Source of the DNA: Planctomycetales bacterium 10988
GTDB lineage: Bacteria; Planctomycetota; Planctomycetia; Pirellulales; Pb10988
Reading direction: 5' to 3'
Assembly (NCBI GenBank): GCA_009664345.1
Contig: CP043547.1
Span: 3,314,709 to 3,378,708 of the forward strand
DNA: 64,000 bases
Positions 36,759 through 40,157 of the stretch are shown here, in pieces; position 1 is the stretch's first letter, and every line of letters starts with the position of its first letter. The position numbers were made by a program, and so were the translations under genes. The notes under the pieces were generated by a model. It did not search any database. It was not told the origin of the DNA and worked only from the letters and a program-made list of their open reading frames with translations.

Positions 36759-39686
36759 TTAGTCTAGAAAATCTAAGCTGACCGGTTGGCCGTTCAGGAA
36801 GACGTTTTGCGGGGGAAGAATGATATTGCCGCTAACGCCTTGAAAACCAAAGTCGATCGTTTGCCCCGGTTGTATGGTTCCGTTCCAGGCGGCATTCGTG
36901 ATCACGTAGGTGTTGCCGGTATGGCTGACGATCTTGGCCCCCCAGATGTTCGTGATGTCCCGATCGAATTGAAATTCCAAAGTCCACCCGTTCAGGGCCG
37001 TTTCGAAGGGGTTGGTCAATGTCATCCCGGCCACGAAGCCGCTTCCCCAATCATCGGCCACATCAAAGGTCACCGCGGCGTCCGAAGTCGGAGCGCTGTC
37101 ATCATTCAGAATGGTCGCCAAGGCAGAGGTCTGTGCTAAGGTTGCATTGGAAACATTCGCCAATTGCAGGAAGAAACTTTCATCCGGCTCGACCTCTTCA
37201 TCCGAAAAGACGGCGACTTGCACCGTCTTGACCGTTTCGCCGGCGGCAAAAGTCACGGTTCCGTTGAGGGCTTGATAGTCACTTCCCATCAGAGCGGAGC
37301 CATCGGCGGTGTTGAAATCGACCGTGACCGTTTCGCTCGAAGCTTCCGAAAGCGTCAACTCAAACGTGACGATCGTCGTTCCGCTATCGCCTTCGGTGAC
37401 GGTAGCTCCTGCCAGCGAAAGAATCGGCAATTCAACCGGCGTTTCGGTGTCATTGTCAAGAATCGTCCCCAAGCCGGTATCGTCGAGCAGGGTGACTCCC
37501 GAAGGACTAGAGAGTTCGACTTCCAGCGTTTCGTCCCCTTCTACGATGGTATCGCCGAGCACCTGGACCTCGATGGTTTGCATCGTTTGGCCGGGCAGGA
37601 AGGTAAGCGTGCCACTGACAGGATTGAAATCAACCCCGGCAGTGGCACTTCCCGCCACCGTGGTGTAGGCAACCGTGACCGTTTCCGTGGTCACTTCGGA
37701 GAGATAAACTTCGAACACAAGCGTTGTGATTTCCGGGCCGCTGCCGCCGGTGCCTTCGGCGGGAAGCAAAGCGAATTGAACGGCTTCGAGCTTCTCAACT
37801 TTTTCCGTTTGTACATTTTGCCAGTCGTCTTGCAGAATCCCTCCGGTGTCGCCCGAGTTCGGATTCCACGACCACCACGTCCAGCTAATGCCTTGTTCGC
37901 CGGGGCCAAGGTCCAAATCGCCGTCGCCATCGAGGTCCCCTTCGAGATACTCGATCATCTTATCGACCCAAGGTTCGTCGAGGGGATTTTCGAGCGAGCT
38001 GCCGAACTCACCCAACAGCAGCGGGGCGGTTCCTTCACGATAGAGATAACCCCACATCTGATCCCAAATCGCCGGGAGATTGTCGGGGAAATTCGGATCA
38101 CTGAACCAAGGCTGATTGTAAACCCCTGCCGGATAAGCATGCGGCGAATAAACCAAACGATTGGCAACATCCAACCGCACCGGATAATCCCCGGCTCGGC
38201 TCAGGTTCCCACCCCACCAATACGTTCCGGCTTCGGTATTTTGAATCCCTTCCACGAAGATGAGCCAATTCGGATTCACTGCCAAGACAGCATTCCCGGC
38301 ACGTTCGGCAGCGAGTCGCCAATCGGTAGAGAGGTCGCCGGACCCCCACGTTGCCGGGCCATGGGGTTCATTGTGCAAGTCGGCCCCGATGACCGTGGGA
38401 TTGTTCGCATAGCGAGCCGCGAGCATCTCCCAATTGCTGATCCACGCGCTTTCAGGATAGGCACCGGTATACCACAGGCCGGAGAGATTCGGACCGCCCC
38501 CAGCATCACTCCGGTGGTGATCGAGGATGATACGCATATCAAGCTCCCCGGCGTAATCGACGATCTTGTCGAACACTTCCAGGCTAGTCAGACCTTGCAA
38601 ATCAGGGTTCAACCCATAGTTAATCCCGTTGGGCATGGTGCCAGGTTCGAGCATTTGCGAAGAGAAAGGCAAACGAATCGTGTTGAATCCGAGCGATTGC
38701 ATCTGATCCATCATCGATTGCCAGTTGCGAGCCCAAAGGCCATGCGGGGAGAAGTTGGAAGTCTCGCCGCCGAACCAGTTGACGCCGCTGAGTTTGACAT
38801 TATTCCCTTGTGAATCGACGATTTGATTGCCTTGCGTACTGAGCCAACCGCCCGCGACCGAAACCACATCGCCTTCCAAAACGGAAGCGTCCGAGATCGA
38901 AATTTCAGGAATCACCGGCGGAGGAACATCGGTATCGAGAATGGTGATCGTGGTACTGCTCGTTTCCAAAGTAGCCCCGACGATCGACGAAAGCTGCAAA
39001 GTAAACGTTTCATCGCTTTCTACTTCACTATCATCAAGGATGACAATTTCCACCACGGCGGAAGTTTCGCCAGGGTTAAAAGTCGCGGTGCCAGAGGTTG
39101 TTTGGTAATCTTGTCCTGCGGTTGCCGTTCCGGGAGCTGTCGCGAACTCGACCGTGATCGTATCGGTAGAAGGTTTAGAAAGGTTGAGCATCACCTGAGC
39201 GATGGCGTTTTGTGCGTCCAATTCGGTGACGGAAAGATCACTGGTTGTCAGCTCTGGCGGGGTTGGATCGGGGCCGCCCCCGTCATCGAGGGCGATGCCA
39301 TTGAAGATGAAGTTCGTGGCTCCAGTGGTGATATTGCCCGGATTGCCAATAAACCCAAAGGCCACCGTTTGACCGACGGCAAGGTTCCCATTCCAGGAAA
39401 GATTGGAGACTGTATACTGATTCCCTGCTTGGCTTTGCAGGTTTCCATTCCAAAGTTGCCCGATCTGCGAATCGAGATCGAACTGCAAAGTCCAGCCATT
39501 GATGGCCGTTGCTTCGTCATTGGTGATACGAATTTCGCCTTGGAATCCGCCTCCCCAGTCGTTGATGTTGACGAACTCAACGGCAGCGGCCCCATCGCCG
39601 GGAACGCCACTGAGAGCGAGCCGTTCTTCGAGTTGTTCAAGTTGTAATCCATCGTGCGGGCGAGACGGCGCTTGATATTTCCACAT
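36759..39686 (-). CDS. GH5 cellulase-like enzyme with CBM2 and Calx-beta domains
   Basis: 975 residues from ATG 39686, preceding the export motif LEQLEERLALSG at about residues 16-27. Order: CBM2-type domain 35-132 (NGWTLQFDL, SWNGNLAVGQTVAFGF), Calx-beta 150-254, start of a second Calx-beta 260-273 (ISISDASVLEGD), GH5 catalytic domain about 277-642, the remainder of that Calx-beta 653-747, a third Calx-beta 753-863, and a C-terminal CBM2 870-975. GH5 acid/base is Glu440 in LHNEPHG and the nucleophile Glu560 in LLLGEFGS; NTIRLPFS and HAYP are also present. An acidic Asp-rich loop (DLDGDGDLDLG) sits within the catalytic part. Likely a secreted endo-beta-glucanase. Confidence 0.92.
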   Translation of the reverse strand: MWKYQAPSRPHDGLQLEQLEERLALSGVPGDGAAAVEFVNINDWGGGFQGEIRITNDEATAINGWTLQFDLDSQIGQLWNGNLQSQAGNQYTVSNLSWNGNLAVGQTVAFGFIGNPGNITTGATNFIFNGIALDDGGGPDPTPPELTTSDLSVTELDAQNAIAQVMLNLSKPSTDTITVEFATAPGTATAGQDYQTTSGTATFNPGETSAVVEIVILDDSEVESDETFTLQLSSIVGATLETSSTTITILDTDVPPPVIPEISISDASVLEGDVVSVAGGWLSTQGNQIVDSQGNNVKLSGVNWFGGETSNFSPHGLWARNWQSMMDQMQSLGFNTIRLPFSSQMLEPGTMPNGINYGLNPDLQGLTSLEVFDKIVDYAGELDMRIILDHHRSDAGGGPNLSGLWYTGAYPESAWISNWEMLAARYANNPTVIGADLHNEPHGPATWGSGDLSTDWRLAAERAGNAVLAVNPNWLIFVEGIQNTEAGTYWWGGNLSRAGDYPVRLDVANRLVYSPHAYPAGVYNQPWFSDPNFPDNLPAIWDQMWGYLYREGTAPLLLGEFGSSLENPLDEPWVDKMIEYLEGDLDGDGDLDLGPGEQGISWTWWSWNPNSGDTGGILQDDWQNVQTEKVEKLEAVQFALLPAEGTGGSGPEITTLVFEVYLSEVTTETVTVAYTTVAGSATAGVDFNPVSGTLTFLPGQTMQTIEVQVLGDTIVEGDETLEVELSSPSGVTLLDDTGLGTILDNDTETPVELPILSLAGATVTEGDSGTTIVTFELTLSEASSETVTVDFNTADGSALMGSDYQALNGTVTFAAGETVKTVQVAVFSDEEVEPDESFFLQLANVSNATLAQTSALATILNDDSAPTSDAAVTFDVADDWGSGFVAGMTLTNPFETALNGWTLEFQFDRDITNIWGAKIVSHTGNTYVITNAAWNGTIQPGQTIDFGFQGVSGNIILPPQNVFLNGQPVSLDFLD

Positions 39687-40157
39687 CAGCGTACCTACTC
39701 CAAATTTGATTAGCGTAAGATAGGTTCGCAAACATCCCTTCTTGAACCTGCTTCTCCGTAGACCCCGCACGCCCTACTTGACAAGCTTAAGATTCAAAAT
39801 TGTTTGCCAGACTCTTTGAGAATTTAAAGAGACAAAACGTTGTCGGAAACGACATCAATGAATAGATCACGAATCATCATTGACGGGTATTTTAGCGATT
39901 AAACAACTAAAAGTTTGAAAAGTTGGCCCCCGCCAATGCATCTGAATCTACTCAAATTTTTCGAGCTGTCTAGGTTTTAATTCAAAAATTCAAGGATTGT
40001 TCATCAATTTTTTCTTGAACTAATAATACGAATTATCTGCCTGTTAAATTCAGTCTTAGAGAGCAATATGACGATGGTAATTATGGGATTTCTCCCCCTT
40101 TCTGAGGGGAGTATGTTCCTTTTCTTATAGCCCATTAGAGGGGGGGAGGTGGAAGTC

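What the first reader, a model, noticed from the sequence alone, without database searches (positions are those of the whole stretch)
37760..38910. GH5 catalytic domain inserted inside a Calx-beta domain
A Calx-beta domain starts with ISISDASVLEGD and should continue with the strand that its sister domain shows as EGDSGTTIVTFELTLSEASSETVTV. Instead the whole GH5 domain intervenes, and the matching strand (TTLVFEVYLSEVTTETVTVAY) appears after about 375 residues. So the enzyme is nested in the loop after the first strand. This would fix the catalytic domain rigidly by two linkers between carbohydrate-binding modules at each end.
Basis: partly seen in the sequence, partly recalled or inferred. 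Interest (0 to 1): 0.55.

Follow-up and report, generated by a model that had tools for sequence, protein, structure and literature searches.

The report
Cellulase nested inside a calcium-binding domain
In this bacterial cellulase the whole cellulose-cutting domain sits inside a small calcium-binding domain, splitting it in two pieces that appear to close up again around the enzyme, and the same layout recurs in many related bacteria and seemingly in a published enzyme treated as two domains in a row.

Summary
Confirmed. Window 36759-39770 (minus) encodes CBM2 - Calx-beta - [Calx strand A, 288-301] - GH5 (308-666) - [Calx strands B-G, 682-774] - Calx-beta - CBM2. Of 84 near-full-length GH5 relatives fetched, 60 have a Calx lacking strand A just after the GH5; 59 of these carry a strand-A-like segment before it, scoring above all 880 control windows (two of 23 other GH5s also score above zero). 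The segment is conserved between variable linkers. Its glutamate E299 matches a calcium ligand whose partners lie about 415 residues later; 11 relatives lacking it keep 0.9 of 6 acidic partners, the other 49 keep 5.2 (only three losses on the tree, untestable). An AlphaFold model (pLDDT 84.5), built with no intact-Calx strand A aligned to the segment, makes it two strands; their partner is not shown. Crystallised CelE2 (8FC0) begins with the same strand, unmodelled in chain B. 'Rigid' is not supported: both linkers are low-confidence. Best reading: GH5 inserted in the A-B loop of a calcium-dependent Calx-beta. GH5-Calx pairing is published; nesting was not found in the open texts searched.

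The parts
36759..39770 (-). 1003-aa multidomain cellulase: CBM2 - Calx - [A]GH5[B-G] - Calx - CBM2
39291..39587 (-). N-terminal CBM2 (about residues 62-160)
   Evidence: two CBM_2 stretches, only the second one's borders printed; borders here estimated
38928..39257 (-). intact Calx-beta 1 (residues 172-281)
38868..38909 (-). strand-A piece of the split Calx-beta (residues 288-301, PEISISDASVLEGD); E299 = codon 38874-38876
   Evidence: two strands in the model
37773..38849 (-). GH5 catalytic domain inserted in the Calx A-B loop (residues 308-666); putative catalytic Glu in NEP (E468) and GEF (E588)
   Evidence: catalytic assignment recalled from GH5
37449..37727 (-). strands B-G of the split Calx-beta (residues 682-774) with acidic residues D714, D740, E744, E747, D772, D774
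37095..37427 (-). intact Calx-beta 3 (about residues 782-892)
36786..37076 (-). C-terminal CBM2 (residues 899-995)

Best explanation
A GH5 endoglucanase domain (closest solved relatives CelE2 and Acidothermus E1) is inserted in the A-B loop of a Calx-beta domain. Strand A, ending in the calcium-ligand Glu E299, is made before the enzyme; strands B-G with the other ligands come after it. The pieces close into one beta-sandwich (shown only as compatible: conservation, co-occurrence, predicted strands), with calcium at the seam next to the insertion point pinning them together (inferred from ligand identity and co-loss). The enzyme is thereby held at two points on a calcium-stabilised module in a rod of Calx and CBM2 modules; calcium outside the cell would favour closure after export (inferred, untested).
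For: Post-GH5 Calx lacks strand A and a strand A stands before the GH5. Of 84 GH5s, 60 have the truncated Calx, and 59 of those 60 the upstream strand. In a class search with a profile that includes both pieces, 45 of 53 matches span at least positions 18-478 of 487 (44 start at 1-3); 14 of the 45 genomes had given the profile its rows, 31 had not. Of 55 matching plasmid records 18 cover over 80% of the query: Azospirillum 16, Microvirga 1, Roseibium 1. Strand-A columns I290, I292, D294, V297, E299 have 0.9-1.4 bits of entropy, the flanking linker columns 2.2-3.2. Only 11 of 60 have an intact Calx in the 150 aa upstream (my count's listing), so the strand is not an appendix of a preceding Calx. 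Acidic residues invariant in 12 of 12 intact Calx rows are also present in the split domain; D714, D740, E744, E747 align with NCX1 D421, D447, E451, E454 (numbering offset worked out by me), calcium-site residues per PMC3386913 (passages). Where the E299 position is not acidic (11 of 60), acidic partners average 0.9 of 6 against 5.2. AlphaFold: strands at model residues 7-10 and 13-16, i.e. in the N-piece; mean pLDDT 84.5, with no intact-Calx strand A aligned to it. CelE2 construct 8FC0 begins LSISDASATEPGSG; chain B models entry residues 18-379 only.
Against: No coordinates or PAE were available, so the pairing of strand A with B-G is not seen; N-piece pLDDT is moderate (70 and 64 in the first two blocks of ten). 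No Calx chain was among the rows listed by the PDB fold searches, which GH5 filled. Ligand co-loss is three events on the best tree and one on well-supported branches; the sign test cannot reach 0.05. One relative with no recognisable strand A (L124) and others without the calcium ligands persist, and three (L140-L142) keep the strand-A Glu while lacking E744. The mapping of E299 to NCX1 E385 is by position and recall; the printed alignments do not reach strand A.
Confidence: 0.82

Rival explanations
1. The upstream segment is a relic or linker; the Calx after the GH5 folds without strand A.
For: L124 keeps a truncated Calx with no recognisable strand A; Pfam scores the C-piece alone nearly as high as the joined one.
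Against: Conserved island between variable linkers and 59 of 60 retention, strands in the model, shared calcium-ligand pattern.
Confidence: 0.08
2. Strand A is swapped: it completes a B-G piece of another molecule, making a dimer or chain.
For: Linkers of 10-18 and 14-26 aa could permit it; the oligomeric state was not examined.
Against: The monomer model already makes strands of the segment, although their partner is not shown.
Confidence: 0.06
3. Strand A belongs to the preceding Calx as an extra strand.
For: In the window it directly follows an intact Calx.
Against: 49 of 60 nested relatives show no intact Calx in the 150 aa upstream (my count).
Confidence: 0.02
4. Artefact: frameshift, assembly error or chance match.
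For: None found.
Against: One open frame and 59 further proteins with a truncated Calx after the GH5.
Confidence: 0.01

Closest known systems
CelE2, metagenome endoglucanase (PDB 8FC0; Pimentel et al. 2023, Enzyme Microb Technol 165:110206; only its reference was seen, in PMC12120621)
   Same: GH5 close to the window's (Z 56.3, 54% identity over 360 residues) with a Calx-beta (its title); its construct begins with the same strand A.
   Different: Its title names GH5 and Calx-beta domains. From recall of the abstract, not seen here: treated as N-terminal GH5 (1-381) and C-terminal Calx-beta (382-477), the isolated Calx-beta being unfolded, which nesting would explain. CelE2's own Calx sequence was not seen here.
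Azospirillum GH5-Calx-beta cellulases (PMC3245306, passages seen)
   Same: Same pair; the paper calls 'GH_5 - CalX-beta' a unique domain architecture. Five of six Azospirillum loci fetched here (L166, L168-L171) have strand A before and B-G after the GH5; L172 has neither.
   Different: Written as linear; nesting not mentioned in the passages seen.
NCX1 CBD1/CBD2 Calx-beta domains (PMC3386913, PMC9820601, passages seen)
   Same: Sequence from strand C on and four acidic site residues align.
   Different: In tandem in an exchanger's regulatory loop; an enzyme inserted in the A-B loop is not part of them (recalled).
Acidothermus endocellulase E1 (1ECE)
   Same: GH5 fold (Z 53.8, 57% identity).
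   Different: The solved catalytic-domain chain has no strand-A piece: the match starts at its residue 2.
Domain insertions in general (PMC13114784: abstract start from the listing and one passage seen)
   Same: One domain interrupting another; the abstract says insertions occur in 20% of multidomain proteins.
   Different: The word 'calx' does not occur in its main text.

Membership tests
Calx-beta (PF03160) | profile match of the domain | tested here: met
   three stretches, whole-protein score over the cut-off; C-piece alone 70.5 bits, cut-off 27
Calx-beta (PF03160) | complete seven-strand sandwich including strand A | tested here: inconclusive
   six B-G strands and two short strands in the N-piece predicted; pairing not visible
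Calx-beta (PF03160) | acidic calcium ligands | tested here: met
   E299, D714, D740, E744, E747, D772, D774 present; the same positions, D772's excepted, are invariant in 12 of 12 intact Calx rows
Calx-beta (PF03160) | calcium binding | not testable with these tools
   needs protein
GH5 (PF00150) | profile match and fold | tested here: met
   E 2.6e-55; Z 56.3 to 8fc0_B
GH5 (PF00150) | two catalytic glutamates (NEP, GEF) | tested here: met
   both invariant in 20 of 20 rows; catalytic role recalled
GH5 subfamily 1 | CAZy subfamily assignment | not tested
   no CAZy subfamily library at hand; suggested from recall by similarity to E1
CBM2 (PF00553) | profile match | tested here: met
   two stretches, E 5.1e-46

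The most novel reading that the evidence does not exclude
A calcium clasp: the secreted enzyme is threaded through a split Calx-beta that closes only when extracellular calcium bridges strand A and strands B-G, making calcium the switch that folds the Calx and sets the stance of the catalytic domain on its CBM rod; Calx-beta would be an unrecognised host fold for inserted enzymes.
Probability: 0.3. Interest if true: 0.65.

Novelty: new variant of a known kind. Interest (0 to 1): 0.52.

Why it matters
A published domain pair (GH5 then Calx-beta) appears to be misdrawn: one module is nested in the other, so constructs cut at the GH5 end would split the Calx and leave both halves incomplete. It gives a simple test of what Calx-beta does in cellulases and a natural two-point, perhaps calcium-dependent, way to mount an enzyme.

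Tried and rejected

Seven alignments for the second fold put Calx or GH5 rows in wrong columns. I then ran 476 and 367 trial row sets locally and chose one by correct placement of the GH5 rows, the Calx B-G rows and strand B of L095; the N-piece was not part of the criterion. One copy of the query was swapped for another before use. The 28 rows: the query and seven shortened copies of it, nine GH5 rows, one nested relative (L095), nine Calx B-G rows of L002 and one Calx B-G row of the window.

Pfam on the joined pieces did not help: its model hardly reaches strand A. The tree-aware test of ligand co-loss has too few events. Viral scans with L095 and with the window added no new contig. Own-genome Calx search: beyond the three in this gene, one weak match under the cut-off, so no second interrupted Calx was seen there. 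A general search for Calx-beta interrupted by other enzymes was not done. No Calx chain appeared among the rows shown by the PDB fold searches; this shows nothing. Papers: ten searches; nesting of GH5 in Calx-beta was not found in the listings or passages seen, but most subscription papers are not held, Pimentel 2023 among them.

Rows dropped before counts: 4 of 88 distinct GH5s as fragments; 1 of 84 for a short upstream stretch. The set is what was fetched, not a census: best matches of searches, and 10 of 55 plasmid records.

Full report
What is there. The minus-strand gene 36759-39770 encodes 1003 aa. Pfam: CBM2 in two stretches, GH5 (E 2.6e-55), Calx-beta in three stretches. Order: CBM2, intact Calx, a 14-residue segment PEISISDASVLEGD (288-301), GH5 (308-666), a Calx lacking its first strand (682-774), intact Calx, CBM2.

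Is it general? Relatives came from 196 genomes of the order (46 with a GH5 match), 392 of the phylum (27), 397 of the class (51 at E 1e-30), viral contigs (13 loci), plasmids (55 records, 10 fetched) and one named genome contig, Roseococcus. Sorting the GH5s fetched gave 88 distinct, 84 near full length; 60 have a truncated Calx directly after the GH5. 59 of the 60 have a strand-A-like segment within 40 aa upstream scoring above all 880 control windows; medians are 21.9 against -7.8 for 23 GH5s without a truncated Calx. Against: L124 lacks it; two of the 23 score above zero, L090 (10.4, a protein on a viral contig without a Calx) and L035 (4.8); 50 of the 60 exceed L090. Two GH5s inside or beside nested clades (L071, L172) lack both pieces; Roseococcus L002 and L089 have an intact Calx before the GH5 and no extra strand. 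On the GH5 tree nested rows are clustered (7 changes, shuffled mean 21.2; well-supported branches force 3), so one origin with losses and a few independent events cannot be told apart.

Named organisms with the layout: Azospirillum, Microvirga and Roseibium plasmids (seven loci). The genomes of the window's own group are unnamed; the LEQLEERLALS-type N-terminus suggests Planctomycetota, from recall.

Does the split domain work as one? Strand-A columns I290, I292, D294, V297, E299 are conserved (0.9-1.4 bits) between linker columns at 2.2-3.2 bits. In 12 intact Calx rows the invariant acids are the strand-A Glu, the Asp of the DY pair, one D and two E in the D...E..E stretch, and the last Asp; the split domain has all of them. 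D714, D740, E744 and E747 align with NCX1 D421, D447, E451 and E454 (the numbering offset of ten is mine). PMC3386913 (passages) says that E385, D446, D447, E451 and D498-D500 coordinate calcium, that D421 does in isolated CBD1, and that CBD1 loses structural integrity without calcium. That E299 equals E385 is inferred from position. In the 60 nested proteins 49 have an acid at E299's position; the 11 that do not keep 0.9 of six acidic partners on average, the 49 keep 5.2 (D714: 49 of 49 against 2 of 11). These are three losses on the best tree, one on well-supported branches: over random pairings the partner sites went the same way in 0.5-0.9 and the other way in 0.0 (rounded), too few for a test.

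Model. AlphaFold on residues 283-780, with no intact-Calx strand A in the alignment's N-piece columns (only the query, three of its copies and the nested relative L095 have letters there), gives pLDDT 84.5 and pTM 0.73; strands at 7-10 (EISI) and 13-16 (ASVL), six Calx strands at 399-489, linkers under 50. A tail without a partner would be expected to score lower and show no strand, but the pairing was not visible. The GH5 part matches CelE2 (8fc0_B Z 56.3, rmsd 1.4, 360 aligned) and E1 (Z 53.8).

CelE2. The 381-aa chain of PDB 8FC0 starts LSISDASATEPGSGG, aligned to the window's strand A. Chain B has 362 modelled residues spanning entry numbers 18-379. Comparing, entry numbers may run two or three ahead of the sequence, so its first 15-17 residues, strand A, are unmodelled. 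The eight chains have 346-364 modelled residues of 381; where the others begin was not seen. From recall of the 2023 abstract (paper not held): the isolated Calx-beta was unfolded. Both fit a Calx cut in two by the construct border.

Mechanism. Shown: complementary pieces, conservation, co-occurrence, ligand set. Inferred: closure into one sandwich, calcium at the seam two residues before the insertion, a two-point tether, calcium-favoured folding after export. Not supported: rigidity of the linkers.

Known or new? GH5-Calx-beta pairing is published (PMC3245306; CelE2 reference). Nesting was not found in the open library.

Noticed in passing
L092, L094, L096, L100 (viral contigs): GH5 domains related to this cellulase sit in proteins that look to me like phage tail proteins; structure matches of the window's model include GH5 proteins of Klebsiella and Erwinia phages.
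   Followed up: no
L090:2539-4281: A protein on a viral contig has strand-A-like repeats (SLSIGDATLTGD, ALSVGDASLEGD) before its GH5 and a DDDD-rich tail after it, but no Calx domain was found in it.
   Followed up: partly
L132, L133, L135, L136, L161 and L143-L146: Nested relatives that lack the strand-A Glu and most of the acidic calcium ligands after the GH5, yet keep the split layout.
   Followed up: partly
L071 (G091) and L172 (Azospirillum brasilense plasmid): GH5s grouped with nested ones that lack both Calx pieces: apparent loss of the whole host domain.
   Followed up: partly
L178 (own genome, contig position 426723-426896, outside the window): Weak Calx-beta match, under the cut-off, in an open frame of 7563 aa.
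   Followed up: no
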